Shown here piece by piece: positions 3,874 through 57,672 of a stretch of DNA of 64,000 nt. Source of the stretch: Lophium mytilinum (lineage: Eukaryota; Ascomycota; Dothideomycetes; Mytilinidiales; Mytilinidiaceae). A program made the position numbers and the translations under genes. The stretch's first letter is position 1; the number at the start of each line of letters is the position of its first letter. Location of the stretch: the NCBI GenBank assembly GCA_010093605.1, contig MU004198.1, positions 378,456 through 442,455 of the forward strand, given 5' to 3'. The notes below the pieces were generated by a model. That model did no database searches, was not told where the DNA came from, and saw nothing but the letters and a program-made list of their open reading frames with translations.

Positions 3874-5211
3874 CGCTAGGGCAATGCCGAATTGGGCTGC
3901 ATCCGCAGCAATGGTAAATGGCGCCTGGGACGGTGTCCCGGCAGCCGCGCGTGTTGGAAGACCAGGCGACTTAGGTCGCTGTTTAGCTAAGTACCGGTTA
4001 GCAGATGCCTCTTTCTTCAGTTCCAGCCATAGAGTACTCGCCTTCGCTCACCGGTTGGCGTTTCCGTCGTCGCGCCATCGTGAATAAAGTGGAGAAGTGA
4101 ACGTTGTGAGCGAGAACCTGTTGTTGATAGATTAAAGATCCGCGCTAGTCTGTTTCGGGATGCGCTAACGCACCCACCCCAAGTCTTGCCAGGCGACTTT
4201 GTAGCATATCCCTGATGCAAAGAAAAAAACCAGATCTTGATTGTGGCTTTTAGATCATCGTTAAGCTCTTGATAAGTCTCATGCAGTCGCTAGCAATTTT
4301 CCTGGCGCAGAAAGCTTCGGCTCAGTAATTGGGATCCTCATTGATACTCTCACATTGTGTAGGATGTTGAAAAGGATCTTGCGATGCTTACTCCTCATTC
4401 GAGCCATACGCATCACGGCATGTAGAAGCATGGAAATTATGCTATCTTGAGTTTCCTTGGAGCATATCGATTCGGTCTTCGCGTCCTCGTATACAGTAGT
4501 CTAATACCTAGGTCTAACTGAAATGGCACGTATCTCTTTAGGAAGCAGCTTTTTTATACATACAGCGAGCAGCCAACAGCATCGCAGAGGAACGCAGCTA
4601 TGTTCTTTCCTTTCGATGATTCACTACCTTGTATCTCCACAATGTGCGTTAGATCAGGAGAGCGCGTAGACGCGGGCGAATGTGCCAAGACTTGTGCGAA
4701 GGTGAATGAAATCGTAGAAAAGAGCATTCAGCGCTTGACCGGCGCGGTCGGCAGAAGGAGGTGGAAACTGGCGGATCCGGAGACTATTCACTACTTGCTC
4801 GAGAACGCCCAGGCTCGACGCGCCTTCGCCCACATAAAAGCCTCCTCGCAGTCTCCTCAACCCTCTCTCCTCCACCAACCTTGAACAAGCACCACCACAC
4901 CAACAAGCACTTTTCTCAAGCAGCCACCACCGACACCAGCTTCCAGCTTTCAGTCTCCAGCCAGAAACGTGCTTGTATCGACCGTCGTGTACGCACACTG
5001 TACATTGTTCCAGGACTCTACCAGGTTCACAATTCACCACCATTTCTCGTGTCCTGCGACATATCTCCCGCTGTCGCGCCAGCTGTCGACCTCATCCTCA
5101 ACAACACACACATCCACCACACCACCGCCTCTCGTCTCCACGTACAAGCACAAGCTTGTCATCACTTCCCAACACACACCTCTACCGTTCATCTTCACGA
5201 ACCCACTCAGC
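3874..5211. other. Intergenic region and probable leader of the downstream gene
   Basis: No gene is supported from 3874 to about 4800. From 4880 to 5211 the plus strand is rich in CA and CT, typical of a fungal 5' leader. A TATA-like CATAAAAG lies at 4833-4840, about 380 bp before the ATG at 5212. Frames that overlap the leader upstream of that ATG are judged spurious. Confidence 0.5.
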
Positions 5212-7353
5212 ATGTCTGCTTTCGACATCACCAACGTCGACGAGGTCACCGGAACCGATCAGTCCAACACCAACATCAACGAGGCTGCCGGAACCGCTCC
5301 GATCAAGGCAGCTCCCATCAAGCGCAAGAGGGCCAAGAAGGAGCCCAGCATGTTCTTGGAGGACCCGACGAGGAAGGTCCAGCCTAAGTCCGCGGCCAAA
5401 GTTCCTGATACCCCGACACTGGACACCTACGACCCCAACTACGTCCCTCCTCGCGTACCCATGAGCCACATCAGCACCCCGATGACCGCTCGCAAGGACG
5501 TGTTCGTTGACCAGAACTTGGTCAGCTTGAATGTTGCCGGCCGCGCTGAGTTGGCCTCCACCCCCGCGGGTCGAAAGCAGCTTAAGGCGGAGGAGACTGG
5601 GAAGAAGCCCGCGAAGAAGCAGATCAGCAAGATAGAGAAGGTGATGAAGGATCCTTCCCAAGCGGCCCGGAACCAGGAGATCCAGGCACAGCGTGCTGCG
5701 AACGGTGCGGATCTGGTGGCTGCCCGGAAGGCGGATAGAGCAGCCAAGGAGGCTGCCAGAGCAGCCAAGGTGGCTCAAAGGAACGCAAGGGAGGCTCAAG
5801 AAGCTCTCCCGAGCCCCCCAAGCCCTCCTCAGAAGCTTTCGGCGGACAAAGCGGCTCTCGATGCGCTGTTTTTCGGCGATGATGAGCCCGAGGTTCCGGC
5901 CGAGAAGAAGGTGGTCCAGGAGCTACCCAAGCAGGAGGTGGCCAAGGAGTTGCCCAAGAAGAAGACAGCGCCGAAGAAGGAAGCGGACGAAGAGCCGCCA
6001 AAGAAGAAGTCAGCGCCTAAGAAGAAGGCGGAGGAACCAGAGGTCATCAATCTGGACACAGACGATGACGAGCCCAAGATGGCTGTTCATGACCAGCCAA
6101 AGAAGGCCATCAAGTCTCAGGCCAAGCCAGGTCCTTCCGACCCCACAAAGCATGCAGCTGGTATGGCCGAGTGGAACAAGAATAAAGAGAGGAGCTCGAA
6201 GTCCGCCCTCCCTCAGGCCGCGCTCCCAGGCTTCATTGCGCCTCGCAAGCGGACTGCACACGCTGCCGAGCTTGAGACGACCCTTGACGACGACGCGCCC
6301 AAGCAGCGGGCCCTTCACCCGATGAAGAAGCTGAAGCTGAAGGAGTCTGGCTCGGAGGAGCTGATGGAGGTCGAAGACACTTCCATGCTTGCCACGGAGC
6401 CTGAGAAGGTTCACCATGAGCCAGGTGCCCCTCTTCCAACACCTCCACGTGAGGCAGATCCTTTGTTTGAAGACGAAAGCGAGGAGGAGGACGAGGATGA
6501 CGAGAAACCAGTCGAATTCAGCGGTCTGGTTATTGTAGATGAAGATGGCAACGAAATGGACCATCCCCTCGCCGTCGCCCCGGGCCCCTTCAATCCCCAA
6601 CGTGAGGTCCCCTCCAAACCTCCACCGAAGAAGGAGCCCGCGAAGCGTACCTCTCTCAATACGGTCGCTGGAGGCCGCGTCACCAAGAGCACCACCCCGG
6701 CCAAAAAGGCAAAGGTCACGAAGGAAAAGGCCGCCCCCAAGCCAAAGGCCGCCCCCAAGCCAAAGGCCGCTCCAAAGCCTAAGGCTGCTCCCAAGCCGAA
6801 GGCCGCCCCAAAGACCACCAAGCGTGGCAAAAACGCCGCAGCTTCTGGACTACATTCCATCAAGGCCCTCTTTGCCATGAACAAGAAGGACCTCTTCTCT
6901 GAGCTCGCGGAAAGTGGCCTGGACATCAACCCCGAGGAGACTGAGCCGCTGCCCCCCATCCTAGCCCGCAAAGCCATTGAGGACGCCGAGAAGCTCGTCA
7001 AGTCCCTCAAGGACGACTATAATGATGAGATGGGGCCTCATTATGGACACGACGGGCAGAAGGCGGAGGAGGAGATTGAGGCCCGGGTCCAGCAGAGAGT
7101 GGAGAACGCGATAATGGCATACATCCGTTCAATGCACCCGGATGATGAGGCCGGTGATGCCCCAGCGGTGGCCCAATATCAGGCGTATAAGGAGAAGATG
7201 GAGGAGGAGCAGGAGCAGGAGGATGAGGACGAAGAGATGGTGAATGAAGAATATGGGGACCTTGAAGCAGAAATGACGGCAGCGCTCCAGGGTGATTACG
7301 AGGAACCCCCGCAGGCGATGAACGACGACTCCTCCGAATCCGAAGAGGAGTAG
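5212..7353 (+). CDS. Lys/Ala/Pro-rich acidic-tailed protein, probably nuclear
   Basis: A single exon of 713 codons. The start is the ATG in CTCAGCATGTCTGC; the frame is open upstream but through CA-rich leader sequence. The protein is low-complexity: a basic patch near residues 36-43 (IKRKRAKK), a long Ala/Arg/Lys segment likely to be helical (about 140-205), repeated PKKK blocks, an acidic run (about 420-435), five copies of an AAPKPK motif (about 507-535) and a very acidic C-terminus. A SUMO-interaction-like motif VINLDTDDDE starts at residue 278. A more ordered segment lies about 560-640. The composition resembles chromatin or nucleolar linker proteins. No enzyme domain is visible. A nuclear location is inferred from the basic patches only. 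Confidence 0.85.
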   Translation: MSAFDITNVDEVTGTDQSNTNINEAAGTAPIKAAPIKRKRAKKEPSMFLEDPTRKVQPKSAAKVPDTPTLDTYDPNYVPPRVPMSHISTPMTARKDVFVDQNLVSLNVAGRAELASTPAGRKQLKAEETGKKPAKKQISKIEKVMKDPSQAARNQEIQAQRAANGADLVAARKADRAAKEAARAAKVAQRNAREAQEALPSPPSPPQKLSADKAALDALFFGDDEPEVPAEKKVVQELPKQEVAKELPKKKTAPKKEADEEPPKKKSAPKKKAEEPEVINLDTDDDEPKMAVHDQPKKAIKSQAKPGPSDPTKHAAGMAEWNKNKERSSKSALPQAALPGFIAPRKRTAHAAELETTLDDDAPKQRALHPMKKLKLKESGSEELMEVEDTSMLATEPEKVHHEPGAPLPTPPREADPLFEDESEEEDEDDEKPVEFSGLVIVDEDGNEMDHPLAVAPGPFNPQREVPSKPPPKKEPAKRTSLNTVAGGRVTKSTTPAKKAKVTKEKAAPKPKAAPKPKAAPKPKAAPKPKAAPKTTKRGKNAAASGLHSIKALFAMNKKDLFSELAESGLDINPEETEPLPPILARKAIEDAEKLVKSLKDDYNDEMGPHYGHDGQKAEEEIEARVQQRVENAIMAYIRSMHPDDEAGDAPAVAQYQAYKEKMEEEQEQEDEDEEMVNEEYGDLEAEMTAALQGDYEEPPQAMNDDSSESEEE

Positions 7354-7635
7354 CCCTCTGGTTCTTCCTTTTCTTTACTTTTGTTATACTTTAAGCGAGT
7401 TTTGTTATATTGCGGGTCTTCTAGTGCCTAACAGCACTAGCTAAACTAAGGCTTCTTTTGTGTCTTTTAGAGGATTCCTTGTCTTTTCATAGGGTCGGTT
7501 GTTTGTACATTTGGTTCTGTCCCCTTGCGATATGTTTGCGAACTACCTCCGAAAGGGTAGAGTATGCTTTGTAGCTGCAGTAGCTAAGAATGGGAACTAT
7601 ATCTACATATACGGATCTCTTTGCTTGACATGATA
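7354..7635. other. 3' flank of the Lys-rich gene
   Basis: AT-rich sequence after the stop codon, with several T-runs typical of a fungal 3' UTR. It contains no gene. The repeat array starts at its end. Confidence 0.5.
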
Positions 7636-8415
7636 AATTGGGCTGAAGCAATAGTGATTTTGACAACCTACTTACCCGCTTGATCCGCTCCGTGACATAC
7701 CTAAAATCAAAAGCTCTGATGTAAAGCGCTTGCCACCGTAGATCAGACATGTAAAATTGTAACCCCGCAAACCAGCCAGGTAAAAACTGAGCACTGGAAA
7801 TCGGGATAATATCCTAGGGATTTTGGCAAACTATATGCACTATCCAACCTCCCTTTGCCATATCTACGGAGAATTTGTCGAATGTAAAGCTCTTAATACC
7901 GTAGATTAGACATATAAAATCCTGACCGCGCAAACCAGCCAGGTAAAAACCGAGCACTTTAACCCAGCTCAACTTCCTAAACCCCTTAGCAACCTACATA
8001 GGCTACCAAACCTCCCCGCACCATATCCTCAGATATTTTCTTGAATGTATAGATCTTGGCACCGTATATTAGACATGTGAAATCCTAACACCTTGAACTA
8101 CCTAAGTAAAAACTAAGCACTTTAAATTAGCTTATCTTTCTAGGCCCTTTGATAACCTACGTAGACTACTAAACCTCCCTTCGCCATATCTATAAAGCTT
8201 TCTTCGGATGTAAAGCTTTGAAAACCGCAGATTAGATATGTAGAATCCTTGCCTCGCAAACCAGCCAGGTAGAAACCGAGCACTTTGAATTAGCTCGACC
8301 TCCCAAGCCTATTGATAACCTACATACAGTCTCAACCCTCCCTTCGCCATTTCCACAAGAAATCTCTCGAATGTAAAGCTCCTGACCCCGCAGACCAGCT
8401 AAGTGAAATCTTACC
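7636..8415 (+). repeat. Tandem array with exact 163-bp period (copy 1)
   Basis: The anchor GTAAAGC or a variant occurs at 7721, 7884, 8047, 8210 and 8373, each exactly 163 bp after the last. Each unit also holds a block like CAAACCAGCCAGGTA, then GAGCACTT, GATAACCTAC and CCTCCCTTCGCCATAT in fixed order. The first unit is partial, recognisable from about 7636. Units differ by scattered substitutions but almost no indels. The array fills the gap between two genes whose 3' ends face each other. A related array in the opposite orientation lies at about 37270-37600. There is no terminal inverted repeat and no open frame. Confidence 0.9.
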
Positions 8416-8520
8416 GATCAATAAAGCTTATGCGGCACGTTCAGCAAGGCAATAGCAAGATCATCACTAGCATCACATAATCTCTATAACCTATCTAATC
8501 CCCACCCATCCCCTACTACC

Positions 8521-10522
8521 TCACCACTTCCCAACCAACCCCGCAACCTCCCTCACCACCTCTGTACCCCCCTTCCTCCCCTCTGCCAACTTAACCTTTT
8601 CTACCGTCCCCTTCGCATCCATCGCCAAGCACAAATCCCGTACCTCCCCCTCCCGCCCCGCCCCAAACGCGATCCACCCCACACACACTACCCCCATATA
8701 CCGCACCTCCTCCGCCTCGTCCGCAGGAGGCCTTCCCAGCACCTCCAACACCGACGCCAAAACTTCCACCTGCTCGCCCTCCGGCAGCTCCCCCACCCCG
8801 GCCTCCTGCCCTGCGGATAAAGCCGCCGTGCGCACTTTATGGTTCGCCCCCGCGAGATTCAGCGCCAGCGCCATCGCCGAGGCGCGCAGCGCGCCATGGT
8901 GCTCGTCCAGCAGCGCGGCAGTGAGGAGGGTAACGAGCAGCGACGACAGCGGAGGCGCGAGGAGGTGGGGCGTGAAGAGCGGGCTGGAGAAGAGGTTGCA
9001 GGCGAGGTGGATGGATGTGAGGCGGAGGTTGTAAGGGGCGGAAGGGCCGAGTGAGGCCACGTAGCTGAGGAGGTGGGTGATTGTGGTAGTAGAGCCCGTG
9101 GTTGAAGAGGCGGAATGCTCTTCGGCAAACCAGCCGGCGATGCGGGGGTCCGGGAGGGTTGTGCGCAGGAGGTCGAGGGCTGTGAAGAGGAGGTCTGGGG
9201 GGAGGGTTGTTGGGGCGGAGCGGAGGAAGGCGGCGAAGGCCGGGAGGGAGGGGAGGGGGGAGTCGATGGCGCCGGCGGCGGAGAGGGATTTGATGAAGGA
9301 GACTATGGAGGTGACGGCGGGGTCGTGGCCGGCGGGGCCCATTTTGGCAGTGAGTTTGTCGAGGGGTGGGACTTTGGGGTAGGTGATTGGGCGGAGGGGG
9401 GTGTGGAGGAGCGTTGGGACGTTCTGGAGCAGATGCGGGTGGCGGGGAAATGCTTGGTCTAGGAGCATTGCTGCGTTAGCCCGTAGTCGACGTTCGTCTG
9501 CACCGCTCCATTCGTCTTGCTTTTGGCCGCGAAGGAAGGACGTGAAGGTCGGGGTTGCTCGGACACCGTATTTCGATGCGACTTCGTACGCGTTGTTAAT
9601 GTCGACTTTGATAAAGACGCCTTTGCTGCCGGCTTCTGCGGCGATTTCGTCGTATGCGGGATATACGATCTTGCAGGGCGCACAGGTAGAGCTCGTGAAG
9701 AAGATTATGGCGCATGATTTTGAGGCAGAATATAGGAGACTTTCGACTTCTTGGAGAGAGGTCACGTTATGAACTTTGCCTTCTGTGCCATTGGACACCT
9801 TATGATATAACCCGGTTGGTGTGTTTCGTGGTAGGGCTGACTGCGGGGGAACGTTTCGTTGCGGTACGGGTGCTTGAGTAATAGATCTCATGGCGCTGTC
9901 CAGTTGTGGTTTGAGCATCTGTCCGAACGGGGTGTTCAGAACAGTCTGTGGAAGGGATGTGATATGGTCTGGTATGCCTCTGCCGACTAAGAACATGGCG
10001 AAGTCGTTGGAACTATGAAGTCGTCAAAGCCGAAACTTCGAGTCTATTGCTCAGTAAACTCACAAGTTGTTGCAGTTATGCAGGAATAAGTCGTAGGATT
10101 CCGGCGTATATATCTGCTTCAGCGAGTCCATGTACTCAAGTATGATTTCCATAGGTAGCGCCGTCTCCCCCAGTGGTATAACCTCCATCGGTGCTCCATG
10201 ATGTGTTGTTCCGGGGTAGCATGTCTGTATGCCCTGGCCAAAGAAGTACTCAACGCCACCGAATACGAGTGCCGTGTGATAGACGGCGTCTAAGGTCTAT
10301 TAGAGGTCGGCTTGATGGGTGGTAGATGAAGGTATGGTACCTATCTGGGTTCCGAGGAACTGGCGGGACAGCTATTTGACGTGTTTAGCTTGGCGTATTC
10401 GAAGGCCGGAAAATGTAGCATACCTGTCGCGCCAGGCCCTAGGATATTGTTAATTAGCTTTCAGGTGGCGGGGTTCATGACACTACCTTGGAAAGATCGT
10501 AGACGTAGAGCTGGACGTCCAT
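8521..10522 (-). CDS. PPPDE (DeSI-like) isopeptidase-thioredoxin-PUL protein
   Basis: Five exons: 10522-10487, 10438-10424, 10371-10341, 10289-10064 and 10012-8521, giving 599 codons in frame. Residues 1-120 form a PPPDE domain with the expected catalytic pair His32 ([10 protein letters not shown]) and Cys100 (LHNCNNF). PPPDE proteins are desumoylating or deubiquitinating isopeptidases. Residues about 180-290 are a thioredoxin fold with active site CAPC (213-216). The C-terminal 250 residues are helical and Leu-rich, matching a PUL domain, the Cdc48/p97-binding module known from PLAA/Doa1. This order is known in fungi. The combined role is inferred to be Cdc48-linked removal of ubiquitin or SUMO with redox sensing. 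The first three exons are very short. The PUL part is strongly skewed in base composition. Confidence 0.9.
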
Positions 10523-11789: not shown

Positions 11790-13344
11790 ATGTCCGGGCA
11801 GTACTCAATCACGCACGCAGCCAACGGTGACCAAACGCTCATCGTACAAGGCGGTGTTAAAGACTTCAAGGAAACTGCCGAAAATATAGTCAACGACGAC
11901 GACCAACTCGTCCACCTTCGGACAATTGAGATCATCGGAAGAGACGACAACGAAGATGCATCCTGGGAAGAACGACCGCAAGAGGAGCTTAGAGCTGAGT
12001 TGAACGCTTTCTGCGAGTCCATGGTCAACATCCTCAACGCAGTCCATGAAAAAGGAAAACTAGAGTCCTTTAAATGGGCTGGTCTTCGATTCTACCTAAA
12101 GAAAGAAGGGCGGTCTGCAGCCTTCTGGGAGGCGCTGTGGAAGCACTCCGCCACTCTCACCAAGCTAGAACTAGACTGCGAACAGCGCGAGATTGGAGAT
12201 ATAGTAATTACATCTCCTATCATCCCTATCAACAACTAGCTAACAGCTCAAAGCCCCACCCCACCGCCCCCATGCCCAATCTGCACACCCTCAACCTCTG
12301 GATGGGCAACGCCTGCGGCGACGACGGCACCATCCTCAACACCCTCCTCCACAACACCCCCAACATCCGCTCCCTCGCCCTCTCCCTACCCGACTGCGAC
12401 CTCGAAGGCTGCCGCATCCGCAACCTCACCTGGGACTACACGTTCCCTCACCTCTCAACGCTGCTCGTCAGCGTCTTCAGCGTCCCCTCCACCCCCGTCT
12501 TCGCCTTCCTCTCCCGCCACCCCCTCGTCACAACCCTCACCTACGGCGTCGACACCGACCGCGACGACAGCCCCGACGTCTTCCCCCCCGCCGCCTTACC
12601 GCATCTCCGCGCTATCAGGTTCGAGATCTGCTTCGACGAGGCCGCCCTCGCCGAGCTCTTCGCCGCCGACGCCGCGCGCCCGATCGCGCACGTCTTCCTG
12701 GAAAGGCATTCCCGGAACGCCCTGTCGCAGCTCGTGGGGGTTGCGGCTTCATTGAAGTGTCTAGAAATCGAGGCGATGGCGCGGGATTGGCGGCCGGAGG
12801 AGCCGGATTCGGACGACTCTGACTCCGACGACGATGAGGAAGCGGAGGGAGAGGAGGAGAAGACGGAGAGAGAGCCGGAGCCGCGGTTGCCGGAAGTCGT
12901 TAAGGGGCTGCTTCCGGAGCTGGGGGAGCTGCAGGAGCTCGCGGTTGGTTTGGAGACGGCGAATACGTATGTGGGGAGGTTTCAGCATCCGCCGCCGATG
13001 GGGGTGGATGATTTGGTAGGAACACCTTGGAATCCTCATGTTGAGTGGCTAGTGACTGACTGCGTGAATAGATCGCCGTGCTGGAAGTCCTTCCGGCGAA
13101 GTCTAAGATACGGGCTATTCGCTTGTCTGATTCGCGGGGCGAAGAGCTTTCGGAGGAGTTTAAGGCGGATGTGCCGGGCGTGCCAGAGGGTCTGGAGTTT
13201 ATTCGATGGGACGTTGGTAAGAAGAAGAATCTGTATCGTCTTGAGAGAGGAAATGGAAAGGTAAAGGCTGTCTTACATGAGCCACTTTGGCAGAACACGA
13301 GTGAGGAGAAGTCTTGGACGGATGAGAGGGTATTGGAGTATTGA
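11790..13344 (+). CDS. Leucine-rich-like hypothetical protein
   Basis: Three exons: 11790-12203, 12254-13015 and 13072-13344, 482 codons. Both introns are phase 0; the first uses GTAATT and the AG of CTCAAAG, the second GTAGGA and GAATAG. The middle exon shows leucine-rich patterns (PNLHTLNLWMGN, IRSLALSLPDC, LSTLLVSVF), the style of fungal F-box/LRR proteins, but no F-box is seen at the N-terminus. An acidic Asp/Ser/Glu insert lies near residues 318-340. The C-terminal exon (VLEVLPAKSKIRAIRL) returns to a folded pattern. The function is unknown; substrate-adaptor-like recognition is only a guess. Its 3' end faces RAD5 at a distance of about 315 bp. Confidence 0.75.
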
Positions 13345-34745: not shown

Positions 34746-34825
34746 TTGCCCGGCACGCTTCTGATTGAGAGGGCACTGGTATCCTCAGTTCAGTCCATAA
34801 CCATCAGTTCGAAACCACTACAGTC

Positions 34826-36910
34826 ATGTACGCTCAATCCGTAAGTCGAGTCACTCGCCCTGGTCACGCTCCCGTTTCGTGGCAGAATTATCGCATGGAT
34901 GATGGCTCCTATTCGTCCGAATATGAGGGCAACTTCAGAACTACGTACCCATTGCGGCCTCGGATTGGAAGAAACCGCGCCTTTTATCCCGATGCTCCGT
35001 ATCCTGGAATTCATGCGCAACCATTCTTACACCATCCTACTGTGATGTCTCGACCTAAGGGACCTCCCCCGCCTCTTGAGGATCCCGATCTGGAGTACAA
35101 GTTCAATCCGAAGTGGAATATCGACTATGCTACCGTATTTCTTATCAATCGACTAGGAAAAGACAAAGATCTAGCCAATGGAATAAGCAAGATACGCGAG
35201 AAATCCCGGCGATACGATACGCGAGAAATTCCATACCGATCCTTCGACGCTCTCAACGACGTCTTGTTCGCAGGTCGACTGAAAGATGCCGTCTACCTCA
35301 AATGGGTAGACCTCGGCCCTCATGTCTCTGGCACCACGTGCAATCCCGGAGAAGGACCTGACCATCGTGTCTCCCGGAGTACTCTTCTCCTGAATTTCAC
35401 GTTGCACCAAGACGCCCATCCCGATGATATCTTAGCCTCATTGATACATCACATGATCCACTGCTACTTCATCGTCACCTGCGGCCCCCAGCTCCCTGAT
35501 GAAACAAAGTATGGTCGTCTCTCACACGGAATGCACTTCGGCAAGGTCATGTCTACTATTAAAGACCTCTCTGCCTCCACAGGTCGTCGGCCTCTCCTTG
35601 TCGACATTGGTCACAACCTCGCACAAGTCAGAGACTACCAGTATGAGAGACCCACTCCAGCCTTATCTCCCCGCAACCTCTCCCTCCTTCGTTCCCAAAT
35701 GGAACCACGCAACCAACGCTCTTCTACCCGCAGTTTCTGCCCTCCTCACCCAAAGGTCAACCGGCCTAGTCAAGCAGAAGTGGATGAGTGGTACACGAAG
35801 ACATGCATTCCGCTCCCTGACCTCCCCAAGTGCGTCCGTGGACAGAATCTTTACACGCTCGTTCTCCCCGGCTCTGACTTCCGCGAGTTTCCACGCGCAA
35901 AAGCACCGCCGAACCAGGAGTATGTTGAGCTCATCTACGCAGATAAATGCGTGTATATCCCTGCTACCTCCATCTCCAGCTACCCGAGCCTGGTAGCACA
36001 ATTCGAGAAAGCAAGATGGCTCGAGATACCGGACGAAACCTCCCTAGAAAGCTTCAAAACCCTCTACGAATTCCTACTCCGCGGTAGATTCAGCCCCGAC
36101 CAGCCATCCGACCACGAGCACGGCAACCACCATACCCCCAGCCCCCCTCTCATCCGCTCCCCCTCCGCAACCGCCGACCCCTACCTCACCACCTCCATCA
36201 AAGCCCTCAAACTCGCCACATCCCTCAAGTTCCCCCAGCTCGAAGCCCACGCCCTCCACCGCCTCAACGCCCTCCCCCACACCCACGAAGACCCCTTCAC
36301 CCTCCTCTCCGAAATCTACACCGACTCCCCTGACCCCCTCCCGGCCCTCCGCGCCTGGGCCCGCGCTTTCCTGCTTCGCCGCGCGCCCGATCACCCCGTT
36401 ATGGCCTACCTCGACCTCGCCACCGACGCCGGCGCCGCTCCTGCGAACCTCGAGCTGCTGGAGCGCGACCGCGGCTTGCGGGAGCGGTTTGACTACCTCC
36501 TCGAGCACGGCGGCGCGTTCCACGCCGACGTCACGGCCGCGCGGACGGCGCTGGAGCGGGACCGCGAGCGCGACGTGTTCTCCTGGCAGGGCGGGCGTGT
36601 GCATCCGCATTTGTTTGAGGTCCCGATCCCGCCACCCCCACCGCGGATGATGGATGATTGGGACCTCCCGCCTCCACCGCCGCCGCCGCCGCCGCCGATG
36701 TTTGAGGGGTTTGAGGGGAGGGGGTTCCCGCATCCGGATTTTGCGTGCTCGGCGACGGCGCTGGGGAGGGAGAGGGAGGCGAGGTTGGGGGTGTTGGGGT
36801 GGGGGCCGGTGGAGAGGGAGGGGGAGGGGTGGTGGAGGAGGCGGAATGGGATGACGGGGCAGGTGGCTGGGAGGAGGGGGGAGGGGGAGTGGGTTTTGAG
36901 GGGGGGTTGA
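34826..36910 (+). CDS. SprT-like putative metalloprotease with BTB-like C-terminal region
   Basis: A single exon of 694 codons. Residues about 120-260 resemble an SprT-like zincin domain: YRSFDALNDVLFAGRL, then HHMIH (208-212) and a later SHGMHFGKVM as third ligand site. In active SprT/Spartan proteases the motif is HExxH; here His replaces the catalytic Glu, a variant also known in fungal relatives, so activity is uncertain. Spartan-type enzymes digest DNA-protein crosslinks. Residues about 350-500 (YADKCVYIPATSISSYP, LKLATSLKFPQLEAHALHRL) look like a BTB-type region that checks expression level or binds partners. The C-terminus has a Pro9 run and a Gly/Arg tail. Coding-strand composition changes from C-rich to very G-rich. 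Confidence 0.8.
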   Translation: MYAQSVSRVTRPGHAPVSWQNYRMDDGSYSSEYEGNFRTTYPLRPRIGRNRAFYPDAPYPGIHAQPFLHHPTVMSRPKGPPPPLEDPDLEYKFNPKWNIDYATVFLINRLGKDKDLANGISKIREKSRRYDTREIPYRSFDALNDVLFAGRLKDAVYLKWVDLGPHVSGTTCNPGEGPDHRVSRSTLLLNFTLHQDAHPDDILASLIHHMIHCYFIVTCGPQLPDETKYGRLSHGMHFGKVMSTIKDLSASTGRRPLLVDIGHNLAQVRDYQYERPTPALSPRNLSLLRSQMEPRNQRSSTRSFCPPHPKVNRPSQAEVDEWYTKTCIPLPDLPKCVRGQNLYTLVLPGSDFREFPRAKAPPNQEYVELIYADKCVYIPATSISSYPSLVAQFEKARWLEIPDETSLESFKTLYEFLLRGRFSPDQPSDHEHGNHHTPSPPLIRSPSATADPYLTTSIKALKLATSLKFPQLEAHALHRLNALPHTHEDPFTLLSEIYTDSPDPLPALRAWARAFLLRRAPDHPVMAYLDLATDAGAAPANLELLERDRGLRERFDYLLEHGGAFHADVTAARTALERDRERDVFSWQGGRVHPHLFEVPIPPPPPRMMDDWDLPPPPPPPPPPMFEGFEGRGFPHPDFACSATALGREREARLGVLGWGPVEREGEGWWRRRNGMTGQVAGRRGEGEWVLRGG

Positions 36911-37269
36911 GGTGGATGGTTTTGGGGTGGTAGGGGGTGTAGGGGACGGATCAAAGAGATAGACGATAGGGGCGGGATTGCGGTGTTGGCGGTCGAGGAT
37001 GGCTGAGTGGGGTGTTTTACGGTATGTAGATTTCATGTGGGTGATTTACGGTGGCGCGGTCTTGGTGTTGAGTAACGTGTTCTGGTGATTCGGGCGACGG
37101 GTGGTTTGGTGGGTTAAAGAGGTTGTCGGAAAAGGAGTGATGGGCGAACTGATTTGAAGAGCTGGATTTGGACATGTCTGACGCGCGCTGTAGGAAATTC
37201 AGTGACTGAATATAGTATTAAGGAAGTCGAGTCAATAAGGGTGCTCTTATAGGAGGCGGAAGTCAAAAC
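36911..37269. other. 3' flank of the SprT-like gene
   Basis: G-rich sequence continues past the stop for about 100 bp. No gene is seen. Confidence 0.5.
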
Positions 37270-37600
37270 GATAGAAAAGCGAGCTGATTCGAATGGTCGA
37301 GATTTTACATAGCTGCTCTGCAGTGTCAGGAGTTTTACATCCGAGAAAATCTGTGTAGATTTGGCGAAGGGAGGTGTGGTAGTCAATATGTTAAGAGCTT
37401 TACAGAAACTTTTTGGGGACAGCGCGAAGGGAGGTTTGATTATTCATATAAGCTGTTAAAGGGCTTAAGAAGATAAGATAATTTAAAGTGCTTAATTTTC
37501 ATATTACTATTTTGCGCGGTTAGGATTTTACATGCTTGATCTACGGTGTCAAGGGCGTTACATTTGGGAAAATCCCTACACCTATGGCAGAGGAGGGTTG
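37270..37600 (-). repeat. 163-bp repeat family, copy 2 (inverted, partly deleted)
   Basis: Read on the minus strand, anchors like GTAAAGCTC occur at 37561, 37403 and 37338. The first interval is 158 bp; the second is 65 bp, which indicates an internal deletion. Shared blocks with copy 1 include CACCGTAGATC, ATGTAAAATCCT, ACCGCGCAAA, AGCACTTTAAATTA and CCTCCCTTCGC in the same order. Like copy 1, it lies between two convergent genes. Copy 1 is 29 kb away in opposite orientation. Confidence 0.85.
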
Positions 37601-37900
37601 GTTGGGAAGTGGTGAGGTGGGAGGGGATGGGTGGGGATTAGATGGTTGATTGATCGATTGATTATTACTCGCAGATTCTATTTTAAGGAACGTGGAGGCT
37701 GTTCTTGTATGTAATTAATAGCCAGCCCACTAGACAAGTGTAGGTCTACATGTGCCTCATGGGCAAAAGTCGGGTATCCAAAGAACCGAACCCATATAAC
37801 CCCTCTCTATGTTTCCTCACCGCCACCCCCAAACCCCCATCCATCTCTCCAACCTCCCCACCGGGCTCCCCTCGGCCTCCAACCCCCTCCCCGTATCACG

Positions 37901-40079
37901 TCAAACCGTATAGCTCCTCTCCACCAACGCCCTCCCCCTCCTAATCCCCCTGCGCCCCTCCCGCCTCTTCTTACTCTTCCGAATCGCCCTCTTCTGCACC
38001 ACCCGCTGTATAACCCTCCACAACATGCTGCGCATCAATATAATAATCGTCGCCGCCATGACCGGAATCGCAATCGTCCAAAAGAACTTATCCGAATGCT
38101 GCTGAACGCCCGGGAACGTCGCGAAATTCTGCCCGAAGTAGCCTACCAGAAATGTGAGGGGCAGGAAGAAGATGGTGACAACGGTGAGCTGCTTCATGCT
38201 CTCGTTCTGGAAGGAGCCGACCATGTTGAAGATGAGGTCGATCATGTTGTCGGCGGCGCGGCGCATTTGGTCGAGCGAGGCGGTGATGGTGATGCAGTGG
38301 TCTTCGACGTCGCCGAGGTAGGTGTGGGCGAGGGGGGAGATGGTGATGCTGGAGATTTGGATGCGGGAGGGGCGCCCTGAGAGGCCAGGGCGGCCGGAGA
38401 GGCCGGTGAGGCCCGGGGTGGACATGGGCTCGGATTTGTGGTCGCGGAGGGAGTTGATGAGGGAGCTGATGGGTTGGATGGAGCTGCGGAGGATGGAGAG
38501 CTCGGAGGTGAGGATGTCTGGGGACGTTGGTGTTAGTTTTATGGGTGTATGAAGAGTGTATTGGTGATGACTGGGATCGCGTTTTGAAATGATAGGATTT
38601 GAACGTACACAAAGATCGCGAATGGCCGATGTCAGGGTCGGTCAGGACCTCTAGCTCCAGCTCGCTCATGGCATCTTCATAGGCTGCAACGACAGGAATG
38701 GCCAGATCGATAATGGCATCTATGATGGCTTGGACGAGCATGCTACCGTCACAACTCTGTCTGATGATCGTGTCTGAAGAGCCGAGACGCTTCAGGATTG
38801 GCTTCTCGATATCTTCTGCGGAGTGCTCGAAGAAGGAGATGACGGTATTGTCCGAAGTTATGAACATGGACACCTGCTCTACGCTGACTGCTAGCTTCTT
38901 CTTGGCCAAGGTCGAGTTGCGCTCCATGTAGATGGTCCTCTCGATGTTTGGTCCGCCACGGTAACGCTGTAGAGTCCGAATCTGTTCCTTGCGTTGGACA
39001 CTCGACTGCAGGCTCCGAGCAGTGACGGTTCCATCAAGCGTGAAGCTCTTGTCTTCTGTCTGCCACGTGTGCTCCATGTCGGCGCTAGTGGGAGTTGGAC
39101 TCAAGAAATCTCGACACTTCTTGTAGAATGACTTCGTCTTCTTGGTCTTCTTGTGCTTGTGTTTTCTGGCAGGGCCGAAGTCTTGGTCCGAGTCGCTGTC
39201 CGAGTCGTCGTCTGTGAGTTTGACGAGCTTCTGTAGGGTCAATAGCACTTGTTCAGTTAGTATGATACATTCTGATTGACTAGATGAAACAAGATAGATG
39301 CAAGATGCAAAAACAGCAAACAAGTAAAACATAGGTTGTATTGTACATGAGTTTCGATGGATATGGTTATATTTAGGGGTTTGTTTAGGACCCGTGTAGC
39401 CCAGGATTGGAAGGATGAAGAGATGAGCATCACATGGAGCAAACGTCACGTGACTGCTTAATGACACCAAATTGCGTATCTTGGCACGAGTAATAGATTT
39501 TGACTTACTGAAAGCCTGGTCAGAGTACCAGTCAGCCTTTGTGCGGCCCCTAGTATTCATCAAGTCTTCAATGGCTAGCCGATGTAGATTTTTGTGGTTT
39601 CCCAGCATCCTGATGACGTCCCAGCTGAGACCATTGACATTGATCCACCGGCATTGGACCCATTCCTCCTTGGGCATGTCGAGAAACACGGCCAAGTCGT
39701 CATTGTCTAGGCGGCTCTGCATGATCTTCTCGTCGGAGAAGTCTACAACTGTGATGTCGCAGTGCTGCTGGAGCAGCTCGAAATGCGGCTGGGCTTCCTG
39801 GGCAGTGTCTACACCCGGCTCGGCACCTGGCTCCTCCCATGTTGGCCGTGTGGGCGAGTGGTAGTTTCGCACGGTATTGGAACGCGTCATACGCCGCTTC
39901 ATGGGAGAGTCGACGGAGAATCGAGGGCTGTGGTGGCCGGTGGCCGACAGGTTGGCCGACAGGGCTGAGACAGCACTGTGCCGGCGGCCGCGATGCGTCT
40001 CTCCATCGGTCTCGGGGATTGTGATGGTAGGGCCTCGCGGGCGGGTCTGGAAGTCCCTGACGTTGGTGGAGTCCGACAT
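37901..40079 (-). CDS. CorA-family Mg2+ transporter
   Basis: Three exons: 40079-39509, 39247-38609 and 38517-37901, 608 codons, both junctions phase 1. The N-terminal 100 residues are disordered with Ser/Arg and Pro. A long soluble domain follows ([36 protein letters not shown]), with a Lys/His insert (KHKHKKTKK) after an Asp/Ser run. Two C-terminal helices ([19 protein letters not shown] and [18 protein letters not shown]) flank YFGQNF, the fungal form of the CorA GMN signature. Plasma-membrane Mg2+ uptake as a pentamer is known for the family (Alr1-like). Intron 1 is 261 nt. A donor-like CGTCAGC|GTAAGT near 40220 suggests a further intron in the 5' leader. Confidence 0.9.
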
Positions 40080-44401: not shown

Positions 44402-44537
44402 CAGCCTTGACCAAAATTAGAGGCCGCCCTAAATTTAAAAAACGTATTTTTAAATATAGATTTCGGGCCGCCACGTAATCTCCGTAAATAGGCTATTCCT
44501 GTAGTAGTAATTAGCCTGTTTTTCAGGGGATTAAGTG
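44402..44537 (+). repeat. Left terminal inverted repeat, 136 bp
   Basis: Matches the right repeat over its full length with five differences. All five are T or A here against C or G on the right, consistent with RIP acting on this side. Confidence 0.92.
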
Positions 44538-47049
44538 CCCGGCCGTAATTACTATAGCAATATAAAGTTTATATTATCTTATACTTGCATAGAGAGGGCT
44601 AAGAAAGCTTATACTTATCTATTTACTACTTTTTAATAATAGCCTTCTTTCTAAATTACTAGAAACCTTAATATAACGCTGTAATATTATTAAATAACCT
44701 AGAGTTAGCCTCTATTTCTTATCGCCCGCCTAATTTACTGTTATTATTAAATTTTAACGAATCTTAATAGCTTCTAAGTATAGCCTTATTTAATTTCTAT
44801 TCTTAGCCAATTAATAGCCTAACGTGGCTGCCCCCTTTAACCCAGCTTAACTACACTAATACGGAAGCGGCTAAGCTACTTAGCGGCCTATTAATTAATA
44901 AGATTATAGGCGGAGTACTAGCGGAAGAGGCGCCTCTTAGAGGGCTATTACTACCGCCTATAGATAACTATAGCCCTAAAATTAGCTGTAATTTTAAAGA
45001 GAATAGCTAGGCGTTTAAGAACTAGAGGGCCCCTAGAGGGGGCTACAGCCGCCTACCTACGCTGTTATTATTAGCTAGATCTGCCTCTTAAACGGCCTCT
45101 TAAATAGCCTCTTAAATAGCCTTAACTGCCTTACCTCTATATTATATATTACGGGCGCCTATAGAGTATAGTAATAGTAATAATACCCTAAAAAAGCTAA
45201 TTCTCTGCTAGTAGGGGCGCTAATAGAAGGTCTATAGGCCGCCGCGTAGCTGTATATTTACTATATATAATATACTATTAGTAATTAAGGTAAAGGTAGG
45301 TAAGCAGGTAGTAAGAATCTTACTAGAGAATACCTTTAAGAAATAAGGCGTTCTATACGCGGTGCTCTAGGTAAAGATTATCTACCTAAAAGTGCAGGCT
45401 ACTCTTTATATATATAACCCGGCGGGTAACTAGATATTAGCCCCGCCTATTAAAATAAAGTTTAATACTATATAGTACAGCGTAAAGCTTTTAAAGCTCT
45501 TAATTAATCTAGAGAAGAAAAAGGACTGCTAACGCTTTAATAAGAAGGTAATTAATTAGGTAGGCTACATTAATAACGCTAACATGTAGAAGCTATTAAT
45601 AATTAAGATAGAACTATTCTATACTAATTAGGGCAGCGCCGGCGGAATAGGCGGCCCGGCGTTAAATTCTATAGTAGCTTAGTTAGCTAGAGCTCTACCT
45701 GCTTAATTAGTACTAGTTAATAAGGCTACTAGTAGTGCATAGCTCTTCTAGACAGCTCTTATAAGGCAGTAGAGGTGTAGCAATTAAACCTATATATAGT
45801 TATTAAGCTAGTACTTTTAAATAGATAGTATATACGTTAGAATTCTTATAGGTAATCTTATAAGCTAGACTATAGTAAGAGGAGAGAATAGTATTAATAT
45901 AGAGACGCCTCCACGGGTAATAATAAAGGTATTCTAGAAGTAATAAGATAATAGGCAATTAAGGCCTAAATTAATGCTAGCTCTAGCAACGCTAGCAGCG
46001 CCTATACTAGTTATTGTAGTCCTTAATAATTAGGTAGTTAGTAGCCGCCGCCGCAGGCGTAGCTTAAGCTTAGAATCTAGGTCGCTATTAAGAAGGAGAA
46101 AGAGATTAAAGAGGGTACTAACTAAGCTGCTATTATTACCGCCGCTACGTATTTAATATGTAAATAGAGTTAAGAATTGCGTCTAGAATATAGAGGAGTA
46201 CTTTAATAGCCTTAAGGCGAGTATATAGAATAATTCTAAGTAGGTAGAGAAGTTCTAGGTAGCTTAAAAGGCTCTCTAGAAGTAGCGGATAACCCTAGAT
46301 TATATCCGCAAAAATAAGGCGGCGGTAAGGGCTATTATAATAGATATAGGCGTTTCTAATATATTAATTAGTAACGTAATTAAAGGAGTTAAGTAGTAGA
46401 AAAAGGAGAGGATAGAGGTGTTAGTAGAGGAGGAAGAAATGTAGAATAAGCTATAGGCACAAGAGAGAGGTAAATTAAGCTTATTTAAACAGGCAAAAAT
46501 AGTTATATATAAAGGAGAAATGCTATATAAAACTATAGTATATTTACTTACTATTTCTATATATAAAATATATGCTATTTTATATATATATTCTCTTTTT
46601 ATATACTATATTTATACTTGCTATTAAATAGGAAGTCTATATACAGCCTTTCTATTTAGCTTAGCCCTTATTTAAGCTAATTAGAGGCCGTATATTAGCT
46701 TAGCAAGCACGCTAATAGCTATTAGCGCAATAGTAAGTATATACGTAGACTTACTATATAACTACAGTCTATACCTCTATTAATTTTCTAGGCTATAGTT
46801 ACTTAGCTCTAGGCAGCAGCCGTTTAAGCTAATTAGAGGCTGTAGTCTAGCGTAGAGGCAGAATAGACTTAAAAGGAGTAAGAATAAGGTACACGCTAAT
46901 ATAATAAGCGAGCTAATTAGCTGCTAGTATATTTTAATTTACCTGCACTTCTAGAAATTAATAGTAAACGCTAGAGAGAATAACCTTCTACTAACTATAA
47001 CCTCCTCTATATTCTCCTCTATGTTCTTAAATGTAACTACTATATTTAA

Positions 47050-48049
47050 AATAGCCTCTTACCTAAGCCCTATTACTACCTACTACCCCTATATAATACT
47101 CTAGGAACTATTTAAAGCTATACTTAAAGTACTTAGAGTAGCCTATCTAAGCCAGCCAGCTATAATATATAAAGCTCTTTAGCTTACTAAAAAACTCCTT
47201 AATTAGGTTTAAATCTAGTAAATATAGTAGTAGGTATACTAAAATAACGCCTGCCTCTCTAAATAAAGCTTCTATCTAATTAGAGTAGTAGAAGCTCGCA
47301 TTATCTATAACTACTACTAATTTTAGCGCAGGAAATTAACTATACGCTGGAAGAAGGTAGTTCCGGATCTAGTACTTATAGTTCTTATTATTTATAGCTC
47401 CTTTATATACTAATAAGATAAGAACGCTATTAATAGTATAGGCTAGTAGTATATTAAGCCGCGTCTCTTCTTAATTATATAGTACTCTCTACACCGGCGC
47501 AACACCTATAGAAGACTATCTAAACTTCCTTATACTAGTCTTTAAGTTAGCATCTAATTTATTAATAAATATAAGCTAATTAGTCTAGAACTATAAGATC
47601 CACGCTATATATATATTACGTGCCTTATAGCTATATTTAAGGGCGTAATGGCAGTACTAGGTATATTAGTATAGGCTTTATCTACTAGGCAGTATACTTA
47701 CTATCTTTCTATTCTAACCGGCCAGCCTTAACTCTCTTATAATAGATAAGCGAGAAATAATAGTACTAAACTTATTATATAGTAGCTACTATATCTTATC
47801 TATATATAGTATTAGCTTTTTAGTAAGCTATACTAGTAAATAGATAACTATTACTATAGTAAGGCTGCGCCGTCTTCCTACTTAATTAGAAGGCGCGTAG
47901 ATAGTGCCCTAGGCCCTCTACTACCTTATTAACTTTCTTGCGGTCCTCTAGCAGTAATTAAGCTTATAGCTAAGCTTATAAAAGGTAATTCCGCCCTTAA
48001 TTAGTATATTAGCGGCGTTATAGGTGTATTTACTTAGGCGGGCAGGCAT
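47050..48049 (-). pseudogene. Decayed Tc1/mariner DDE transposase
   Basis: Begins with an ATG reading MPARLSKYTYNAANIL and continues with lysine-rich helix-turn-helix-like sequence that soon meets stop codons. Near 47312-47190 the remnant VVVIDNASFY and then VILVYLLLYLLDLNLIKEFF corresponds to the second Asp and the PYSPDLNPIE block of DDE_3 transposases, with Pro and Ser codons converted to Leu by C-to-T change. Many stops and substitutions make it non-functional. Boundaries are approximate. Confidence 0.75.
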
Positions 48050-48169
48050 AGTAGTAAAGAAAATAAGAAGCTATTACAAGAAATCCGTGTAGAAAAGGAG
48101 GAAGAGAGAATGCAGCAGATGGGATAGAAGGGCTCGGCGAAATCCAGTTTATTTGTTGTTGTTGTTATC

Positions 48170-48305
48170 CACTTAATCCCCTGAAAAACAGGCTAATTAC
48201 TACTACAGGAATAGCCTATTTGCGGAGATTACGTGGCGGCCCGAAATCTATATTTAAAAATACGTTTTTCGAATTTAGGGCGGCCTCTGATTTCGGTCAA
48301 GGCTG
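48170..48305 (-). repeat. Right terminal inverted repeat, 136 bp
   Basis: Reverse complement of the left repeat with five transitions. The 120 bp inside it, up to the transposase ATG, also keep near-normal base composition, so decay is weaker at this end. Confidence 0.92.
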
Positions 48306-48676
48306 TATATGCTCTATAATACGAATCGGTATAATCTCCGACTTATCGTCTATCCAGGCTTTGGTGGGGAACTGGGCGTTACGTCAGGTGCTTAAAATAG
48401 TGTATATGCAGGGGTCGAGGGACCACTTCGTGGCTTGGAAAGAAGACGCAGCAGCTCGAGTCGGATCGCCCTTATTACTTCCCTATCATCAACCACGGGG
48501 CTGGAATCCTGTCGTACCACAGCCGGCTCTCCATGCCTGCGTCCTAGTCGTTTCCCGAACCATAAAACTCGTTGAGTATGCAGAATGTCCCGCCTTGACA
48601 TGAAGACTTGGGACGAGAGACTGACTATACATTCTCGTAGGGCAAACTTCCCCCCACATAGGCATGCGATGCGACA
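48306..48676 (+). promoter_or_regulatory. Promoter region of the P4-ATPase gene
   Basis: Only 371 bp lie between the transposon end and the ATG. The sequence has normal GC content and no sign of TpA bias spreading from the element. No TATA box is evident. Confidence 0.5.
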
Positions 48677-55623: not shown

Positions 55624-57672
55624 ACGTTGTGAAATGGAAAGAGCAAGATTTGGAAACCGATTTGTTGATGAAAGCTGATTACGAAAAGGTTTGCAAATTC
55701 GTGTAATGGCGAGAGGCAAGCCGAAACGATGAGGATAGAAGCGATGGAAGTGGATTTTAGAGGTCGTTTCGGGGATATGATATCTCTGTATGCGTTTTGG
55801 CGCCCTAAAGAGACAGGGGAGGAGCCAGCGACGGCAGAGTCGGGACCGTCGTTGCGAGAGGGAAAGGATTATATGGTGCTGGAATGGTAGACCGGTCGTG
55901 GTAGAGACTGGTGGATATAGGCGGTGGACATCTCTTACCTACGCTAAATCCTCCTCCACAGCGTGAAATGAAAAGAGCAAGATACAGTACTAGCCCACAA
56001 GACTGGGGTCACTGGTATACCACAGCTTGAGGGCCATTTTGGAAGCTAGGCATCACTGTCAAAGGCGGCACCGATGCTTGAAAATCGGCAGTCAAGAGGC
56101 TGCTTAGACTCCAAGGTATGAGATTCGGCATCACGCGTAGGTTTTTGTGGCACCACTGGAGCACCTCAGGCAGTGGGAAACGAAGGTGCAAAGACCTGTT
56201 GTCGGTCACCTGAATCTAACCCTTATGACAAAAGCGTTCAAAAAGAGACTGTAAATCAGGTCAACGAATTCTTGATTCCTAAGCGGCCGCTGGAGTGTCT
56301 CTGTGGGAAGCTTAGTTGCTTTTGTCACTTAAAGTTACAGATCGAACCGAGTAAACCGAACTTTGATAGACGTGGTGTGCACGCGGCGTAGTTACAAGTT
56401 GGCTAATATGGACCACAGAAGCAGCAGACGTAAATAAGGTCGTCGTTCAGAGGATGTTTAAACCCTGCTGAGGCACCTCTGTTAGGAATTAGCGCAGTGT
56501 AGTTGCTTAAAGTCACAATTCGAACCGCGTGAAAGGAATTCTGGTAAGATGCGGAGGGCTCGTTGGAGAGAGAGGCCAGATTAGAGCGACGGAAAAAGGA
56601 TTACGAAAAACGGAGGAAGCGCCTTTCCGAAGATTCTGAGCCGATTGGTTACTAAAATTCACATATCTAACTGCGTACAAAAAGATTTTTAGACGCGGAG
56701 GGTACATCGCGTGGCAGATATAGTTGTGGTTTTACCCCTTGATAGATAGATATAAATTAGGCTGATGGAATTAGGATCGCAAAAGACAGTGGAAACACCT
56801 CCATGGAGGATCTGAACAGATTGGTTACTAAAAGTCACATATTGAACCGCGTGAAAAAAAACTTTTTACTTTTTGATGGAGGGGCGTAAGTTAGGCTGGC
56901 GGAAATAGGATGGCGAAAAACGGCGGAAGCACCTCTATGAAGGACCTAAGCAGATTAGTTACTAAAAGTCACATATCGAACCAAGTACACCGATTTTTGG
57001 TAGACGATGCGTGGACGCGGCGTGCCGTAGCCTAGTCTCTACCAAGGAGGCATGAATCAGCCCGCGGGGAAGGGGATATCGGAAACGTTCCTGGTTTCCC
57101 CTCTGCGCCAGTTCTACACTTTTTTGTTGCAACTTTTCACGAATCTGACCGCGCGAATCGAAAAATCAGTGACGCAGCGTATACGCAAAGACCACGAAAA
57201 GGGCTGCGCTGCGAGCAAAGGGCTATTAATTAGACTATTGTCAAAAGGATAATGAACACAAGACGAGGTACCCCTGTTAAGAGTTTGTGGCCTTTTATTG
57301 CAAGTGTTAACGAATCTAACCACGCGAATCAATTTTTGGTAGACGTGGAGGGCACGCGGCGTGCACCTGGCGTAGTCACCTTTCCAAACGAAAGTAGTGA
57401 GATGCATATGTTTGAATTCAGATGCTCTTTCGAAAAACATTGGTAGGTGCGATCGAAGCTACCCTTGTAATGTCTAGCCCAGATTTAATGTGTCCCAGAT
57501 CTTGAATGGCATCGTGCTTCGCCGCATTGCCTCGCCGCAATCGAACCAAGGTGCGACGTTTTGCTTTCGAGTCCTCTACGAATTCACGACAAATCCAGCA
57601 CACGACATTCGCGCTCCCATTTTGGTCTTTTCTGAAATCTAGAGACTCCCGGCATCTTTATACCATCGCACA
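55624..57672. other. Interval with a degenerate repeat array
   Basis: No gene is supported. From about 56300 to 57400 it contains the repeats listed separately. The last 270 bp (57410-57672) are the promoter of the next gene. Confidence 0.55.
56300..57400 (+). repeat. Degenerate tandem repeats, period about 134-178 bp
   Basis: A core like AGTCACATATCGAACCGCGT recurs near 56341, 56519, 56665, 56841, 56975, 57143 and 57314 (spacings 178, 146, 176, 134, 168 and 171). Units also share TTTTTGGTAGACG, CACGCGGCGTG and GGAAGCACCTCTATG-like blocks. It is unrelated in sequence to the 163-bp family. Divergence is high and includes indels, so the array is old. Confidence 0.75.

What the first reader, a model, noticed from the sequence alone, without database searches (positions are those of the whole stretch)
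7636..8415. Tandem repeat with an exactly conserved 163-bp period
Five anchors lie exactly 163 bp apart although the sequence between them has diverged by many substitutions. Indels have therefore been excluded more strongly than substitutions, so spacing may be under selection. The period is close to nucleosome repeat lengths reported for fungi (inference). The array has no coding capacity and no terminal inverted repeats.
Basis: partly seen in the sequence, partly recalled or inferred. Interest (0 to 1): 0.75.

Follow-up and report, generated by a model that had tools for sequence, protein, structure and literature searches.

The report
Old 163-base tandem array, two loci
Between two fungal genes lies an old, decayed tandem repeat whose units have kept the same length; a broken sister copy nearby suggests that the spacing is not essential there, so it is most likely an ordinary repeat relic with an unusually intact rhythm.

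Summary
Window 7636-8413 carries about 4.8 non-coding units of exactly 163 bp, 56-74% identical pairwise, with one gap-free block of 776 bp. It lies between convergent genes. The reading "selection on spacing / nucleosome phasing" is not established. DNA and pattern searches of the 43.2-Mb genome gave one other copy: a degenerate, inverted sister array at 37605-37010, 29 kb away, also between convergent genes. It has lost register: gaps of 5, 85 and 13 bases and a strongly gapped remnant. Against other diverged tandem repeats of this genome, array 1 is nevertheless indel-poor: 0 gaps per 186 mismatches versus 16 per 346 (naive p 0.002; 0.016 if a doubtful edge gap counts). I found no convincing nucleosome, coding or RNA-structure signal and no dominant RIP signature. 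A 49-bp near-identical copy of the neighbouring gene's 3' end abuts the sister array, probably a trace of ectopic template use. Best reading: an old, locus-specific, nucleosome-length tandem duplication decaying mostly by substitution.

The parts
7636..8413 (+). Array 1: 4.8 units of exactly 163 bp (starts 7636, 7799, 7962, 8125, 8288), non-coding, GC 0.43
37010..37605 (-). Array 2: degenerate inverted sister. 37605-37405 is in register with the array 1 consensus; gaps of 5, 85 and 13 bases follow; 37383-37278 matches one more unit; 37277-37010 is a strongly gapped remnant
8493..8541 (+). S segment, presumed original copy: last six codons, stop codon (8521-8523) and 28 bp of 3' flank of the thioredoxin-PUL gene
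37595..37643 (-). S segment, presumed ectopic copy (47 of 49 identical), overlapping the start of array 2, whose first unit begins at column 42. A 23-base piece of S with up to 3 mismatches has only one further place, on another contig, with 3 mismatches
4885..7353 (+). Flanking reading frame (822 aa stop to stop, no Pfam family at E 0.001) that ends towards array 1
8521..10023 (-). Flanking reading frame with thioredoxin and PUL domains (and a PPPDE peptidase fragment below Pfam's cut-off), convergent with the previous one
34769..36910 (+). Reading frame (SprT-like, just above Pfam's cut-off) that ends towards array 2
37901..38641 (-). Reading frame with the end of a CorA-like Mg2+ transporter, convergent on array 2

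Best explanation
An old, locus-specific tandem duplication with a nucleosome-length unit (satellite- or minisatellite-like), without coding function, in the spacer between two convergent genes. A 163-bp stretch was amplified in place to about five units. After the units had begun to differ, a multi-unit stretch was copied in inverted orientation into another convergent spacer 29 kb away (or the reverse). Both arrays then decayed. Array 1 kept its register because indels outside homopolymer runs are rare compared with substitutions and it was spared by chance, possibly helped by weak constraint; array 2 lost its register through deletions. A later break-repair event at array 2 used sequence next to array 1 as template, leaving the 49-bp S patch joined at microhomology. 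Shown: period, gap-free block, two copies only at the sensitivity used, the decayed sister, the S patch. Inferred: neutrality, the order of events, the repair mechanism.
For: Only two places in 43.2 Mb match array 1, the sister or a two-unit consensus, and a 26-base core pattern with up to 3 mismatches gives five places, all in these arrays, with 0 control matches (it misses unit 5 and the other array 2 units, which shows its limit). The sister has gaps of 5, 85 and 13 bases and a gapped remnant. In the unit tree, the three partial units of array 2 are interleaved with those of array 1 (split u1, u2, A2_1 against the rest: bootstrap 81 of 100), which fits copying after amplification. Other diverged tandem arrays with no stop-free frame over 121 aa occur in the same genome (window 56242-57445; L026 5653-6755; L028 462-716). 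No open frame through the array and no phase signal in conservation (six of six tests p 0.23 or more). RNAalifold consensus energy only -0.09 kcal/mol. No Rfam match at gathering level in the window. Array 1 has no homopolymer run of 6 or more; in Neurospora mutation-accumulation lines 88 of 96 one-base indels fell in homopolymers (passages of PMC10234303).
Against: Array 1 is indel-poor against controls: 0/186 versus 16/346 (p 0.002) or versus 32/516 (p 0.0001); with one edge gap counted, p 0.016 and 0.0009. With 143 parsimony substitutions, 6.6 indels would be expected at the narrower control rate, P(0) 0.0013. These values are after the fact, the pairs are not independent and arrays differ in indel rate. 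Against the sister the p value is 0.11 (two events), 0.035 (three events) or 0.10 (three against one edge gap). Conservation along the unit is clustered (p 0.0002), and columns 83-123 are the best kept quarter in array 2 (83/98) and nearly so in array 1 (175/205), which could mean weak function. Private shared states do not settle which unit is orthologous to which.
Confidence: 0.68

Rival explanations
1. Spacing is selected: each unit phases a nucleosome or binds a factor, so that indels are removed while substitutions are tolerated; the array would be a chromatin or terminator element between convergent genes.
For: A gap-free block of 776 bp at 26-44% pairwise divergence, with fewer gaps than same-genome controls; position between convergent genes, as for array 2; clustered conservation; WW-dinucleotide power near 10.2 bp in the top 5% of 643 sample windows, although a coherent tandem array inflates that figure.
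Against: The sister array lost register; no other homologous array found; the 10.19-bp harmonic is only the sixth strongest of the unit; array 1 invariant columns are matched in array 2 at 0.79 against 0.73 for variable ones, r 0.05; other arrays in the 264 kb examined have other periods.
Confidence: 0.15
2. RIP (repeat-induced point mutation), which makes C:G to T:A changes and no indels, caused most of the divergence and therefore preserved the register.
For: The genome shows RIP: the 44.5-48.5 kb block has a composite index of +1.44. Array 1 has +0.12 where 58 of 64 1-kb windows are negative. Transitions are modestly enriched in RIP context, 35/119 against 83/409, p 0.045.
Against: Transversions are 40% of the classified differences between adjacent units (79 of 197) and pairwise ts/tv is 0.66-2.67. 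RIP can explain only a minor part.
Confidence: 0.06
3. Remnant of a mobile element with internal tandem repeats, or of a satellite family that was once larger and is now lost from the genome.
For: Two separated inverted copies in similar spacers; units interleaved in the tree.
Against: No inverted repeats of 14 bp or more around array 1; apart from S, the tested flanks of the two arrays show no similarity clearly above shuffles (19, 44 and 96 of 200 shuffles reached the three scores); no further copies found.
Confidence: 0.08
4. A family of small non-coding RNA genes, such as C/D box snoRNAs, one per unit.
For: Weak match of unit 1 to GlsR5, 23 bits, E 0.011; the better kept half of the unit is about 80 bases.
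Against: Gathering score is 100 bits; only unit 1 of five is listed; the box-like letters differ among units (motif definitions recalled); no conserved fold.
Confidence: 0.03

Closest known systems
Nucleosome-length satellite DNA (monomeric alpha satellite and similar: recalled; review PMC8122249 seen as listing, abstract start and passages)
   Same: Head-to-tail units of about nucleosomal length, diverged by many substitutions, little length variation (recalled), non-coding.
   Different: Only about five units at one place and one broken sister; not abundant, not shown to be centromeric or heterochromatic, lies between genes.
Other diverged tandem arrays of the same genome (window 56242-57445; L026 5653-6755; L028 462-716)
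   Same: Offsets of 134-228 bp between aligned copies, 61-81% alike, no long reading frame; the first is unique in the genome by DNA search.
   Different: They carry gaps and uneven spacing, although one of the four pairs of the first has none.
RIP-mutated repeats of filamentous ascomycetes
   Same: Same genome shows RIP nearby.
   Different: Differences here include 40% transversions.

Membership tests
Nucleosome-length tandem repeat (satellite-like) | Head-to-tail units of about 150-200 bp, non-coding | tested here: met
   Period 163, 4.8 units; stops in all frames
Nucleosome-length tandem repeat (satellite-like) | Long, abundant arrays, usually centromeric, pericentromeric or telomeric | tested here: not met
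   778 bp between genes; two places found in 43.2 Mb. Chromatin state could not be tested. So it resembles such a repeat in form, but is not filed as satellite DNA in the strict sense
Spacing-constrained nucleosome array | Fixed spacing in all copies | tested here: not met
   Sister array has lost register
Spacing-constrained nucleosome array | Indels depleted relative to substitutions | tested here: met
   0/186 against 16/346, p 0.002; p 0.016 with one edge gap, with the caveats given in the report
Spacing-constrained nucleosome array | Many arrays of the same spacing | tested here: inconclusive
   No further homologous arrays found; unrelated arrays of the same period were looked for only in 264 kb, none found
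Spacing-constrained nucleosome array | Phased nucleosomes in vivo | not testable with these tools
   Needs MNase-seq
RIP-mutated repeat | Almost only C:G to T:A transitions, biased to CpA | tested here: not met
   79 of 197 classified differences are transversions
C/D box snoRNA cluster | Rfam-level match in each unit | tested here: not met
   No gathering-level match; one weak match in one unit
MITE or other DNA element with terminal inverted repeats | Terminal inverted repeats | tested here: not met
   0 inverted pairs of 14 bp or more in 7354-8520 (exact seed of 9, no gaps)

The most novel reading that the evidence does not exclude
The register of array 1 is under purifying selection against indels: a short gene-spacer array in which unit length, more than sequence, is what matters (one nucleosome or bound complex per unit separating convergent genes), with array 2 as a copy that has lost the function.
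Probability: 0.13. Interest if true: 0.65.

Novelty: new member of a known kind. Interest (0 to 1): 0.3.

Why it matters
If neutral, it is a clean small example of how a nucleosome-length tandem duplication ages in a genome with RIP: substitutions far outnumber indels, one copy keeps register, the other breaks, and an ectopic patch marks contact between them. If the spacing proved selected, it would be a short array conserved for length rather than sequence, with a broken sister in the same genome as a natural control.

Tried and rejected
Coding origin: six-frame translation of the four full units, stop counts and phase tests were negative. The 163-bp period is also not a multiple of three. 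I considered an exon-plus-intron unit while reading the sequence; no frame is free of stops in all four full units except for parts, so I dropped it, without a splice-site test.

RNA structure and RNA families: no consensus fold, no Rfam family at gathering level; the weak GlsR5 match in unit 1 was judged chance. No tRNA in the window (ARAGORN was run with the bacterial code).

Larger composite repeat (array plus S repeated): the flank after S in locus 1 does not match the array (136 of 300 shuffles reached the score); the flank before S in locus 2 is borderline (14 of 300). I read S as a patch, not as part of a larger unit, but the second figure leaves some doubt.

Weak sequence-model match at 13118-13201 minus (E 0.016): not followed, too weak.

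Literature: seven searches listed papers on nucleosome spacing, satellites, mutation accumulation and fungal repeats; among the titles and abstract starts listed I saw none that describes this array. I read passages only (no whole paper) of PMC4938642, PMC10234303, PMC8497519, PMC2897762, PMC3376729 and PMC8122249.

Control pairs: 13 were given. Two (L026 1840, L040 5617) aligned trivially onto their own overlap and gave no counts; BLAST had given them 106 mismatches with 17 gaps and 92 with 7. The other 11 gave 516 mismatches and 32 gap events. I then dropped four: L037 (GC 0.32), L026 706 and L026 2857 (stop-free frames of 102 and 144 aa) and L039. The last was dropped because its locus holds an AT-rich block, but the pair itself has GC 0.50, so that drop is not well founded; it would add 46 mismatches and 6 gaps. 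The seven left have 346 and 16, summed by hand. The drops make the contrast weaker, not stronger.

Mended on checking: the sister has three gap events in its alignable part, not two, so its comparison with array 1 is given for both counts; a doubtful 1-base gap at the end of array 1 is now stated. These pull in opposite directions and I left the odds as they were.

Full report
What is there. The window belongs to a 43.18-Mb genome in 24 contigs. At 7636-8413 lie about 4.8 head-to-tail units of exactly 163 bp. Tandem Repeats Finder reports 0% indels. A wrap-around alignment to the consensus runs 776 bp, 7634-8409, without a gap; a 1-base gap followed by 18 weakly matching bases at the far end is possible. 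The anchor ATGTA stands at 7719, 7882, 8045, 8208 and 8371. Unit identities are 56-74% over ten pairs. No other place among the 264 kb examined scores near it.

Context. The array fills most of a spacer between two convergent reading frames: one with no Pfam match ending at 7353, and one with thioredoxin and PUL domains ending at 8521. It is not coding (9-21 stops per frame in the six frames, no three-base phase in conservation). It has no conserved RNA fold, no Rfam family at gathering level and no inverted repeats of 14 bp or more.

Copies. DNA searches of the whole genome with array 1, with array 2 and with a two-unit consensus, and a 26-base core pattern with up to three mismatches, find only two places. 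These searches score only the best candidates, so very decayed copies could be missed. The second place is in this window, 37605-37010, minus strand, again between convergent reading frames (SprT-like and CorA-like). It keeps register for 201 bp, then shows gaps of 5, 85 and 13 bases, then 106 bp of one more unit, then a strongly gapped remnant. Its three partial units are interleaved with units of array 1 in the tree (bootstrap 81 of 100 for the main split), which suggests copying after amplification. Private shared states are too few to assign each unit.

The S patch. At 8493-8541, 79 bp after array 1, stands the end of the thioredoxin-PUL gene (GLVGKW and stop on the minus strand). A copy with 47 of 49 identical bases stands at 37643-37595, at the very start of array 2, whose first unit begins only at column 42. 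A 23-base piece of S with up to three mismatches occurs otherwise only once, with three mismatches, on another contig; the reversed control pattern also has one match. S is far more alike (47/49) than the units of the two arrays (68-74% for the best partner of each array 2 unit). It also lies on the other side of the array. I infer that it was not copied together with the array but by a later break-repair event at array 2 that took its template beside array 1 and rejoined at an apparent microhomology, ACCAACC.

Are indels excluded? Adjacent units of array 1 differ by 186 mismatches and 0 gap events under one scoring scheme (four pairs). Eleven usable control pairs from other diverged tandem repeats of this genome give 516 and 32; seven of these, kept after a stricter choice, give 346 and 16 (the second total summed by hand). 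Fisher p is 0.0001 and 0.002, or 0.0009 and 0.016 if one edge gap is counted for array 1. The parsimony count for array 1 is 143 substitutions, for which 6.6 indels would be expected at the second rate, P(0) 0.0013. The true strength is less: the array was picked because of its regularity, pairs share units, and arrays differ in their own indel rate. Array 1 also lacks homopolymer runs of six or more, while two of the five other repeats examined have them. In Neurospora mutation-accumulation lines 88 of 96 one-base indels fell in homopolymers (passages of PMC10234303). Against its own sister (2 or 3 indels per about 73 substitutions, with 0 per about 155 in array 1, substitutions worked out by hand from the terminal branch lengths) p is 0.11 or 0.035, and 0.10 for three against one edge gap. 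The gapped remnant of array 2 at 37277-37010 was left out of that count and would widen the contrast.

Is it nucleosome spacing? Fungal nucleosome spacing differs between species (PMC2897762 passages). Dinucleosome lengths peak at 285 nt in Aspergillus fumigatus and 300 nt in Mixia (PMC3376729 passages). So 163 bp is in a plausible range but not diagnostic. AT-dinucleotide power near 10.2 bp is in the top 5% of 643 sample windows, but a coherent array inflates this; within the unit that harmonic is only sixth. The sister array has lost register. Other arrays in the 264 kb examined have other spacings. Columns invariant in array 1 are hardly better preserved in array 2. Conservation along the unit is clustered (p 0.0002), and columns 83-123 are well kept in both arrays, so weak function is not excluded.

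RIP as the reason for substitutions without indels was tested: RIP-context transitions are mildly enriched (35/119 against 83/409, p 0.045), but 79 of 197 classified differences are transversions. It is at most a minor contributor.

Verdict. A real, old, locus-specific tandem array of nucleosome length with an unusually intact register and one broken sister. The most likely account is neutral decay with few indels. Selected spacing keeps a probability of about 0.13-0.15 and can be tested with relatives and nucleosome maps.

Noticed in passing
window 56242-57445: Another diverged tandem array without a long reading frame, with uneven spacing (offsets 134, 166-180, 302-339), unrelated to array 1 and unique in the genome by DNA search.
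   Followed up: partly
window 44500-48500: AT-rich block (GC 0.35) with a strong RIP signature, composite index +1.44.
   Followed up: no
window 37595-37643 (-) and 8493-8541 (+): 49-bp near-identical copy of the 3' end of the thioredoxin-PUL gene at the edge of array 2; C-rich, so the other strand is G-rich.
   Followed up: partly
L026 5653-6755 and L028 462-716: Further diverged tandem repeats, offsets about 228 and 154-155, in 200 kb of sampled genome: such repeats may be common in this genome.
   Followed up: partly
window 8521-10023 (-): Reading frame that joins a thioredoxin domain and a PUL domain, with a PPPDE peptidase fragment (below Pfam's cut-off) at its start.
   Followed up: no
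window 13118-13201 (-): Weak match to the unit model, E 0.016 in the window, probably chance.
   Followed up: no
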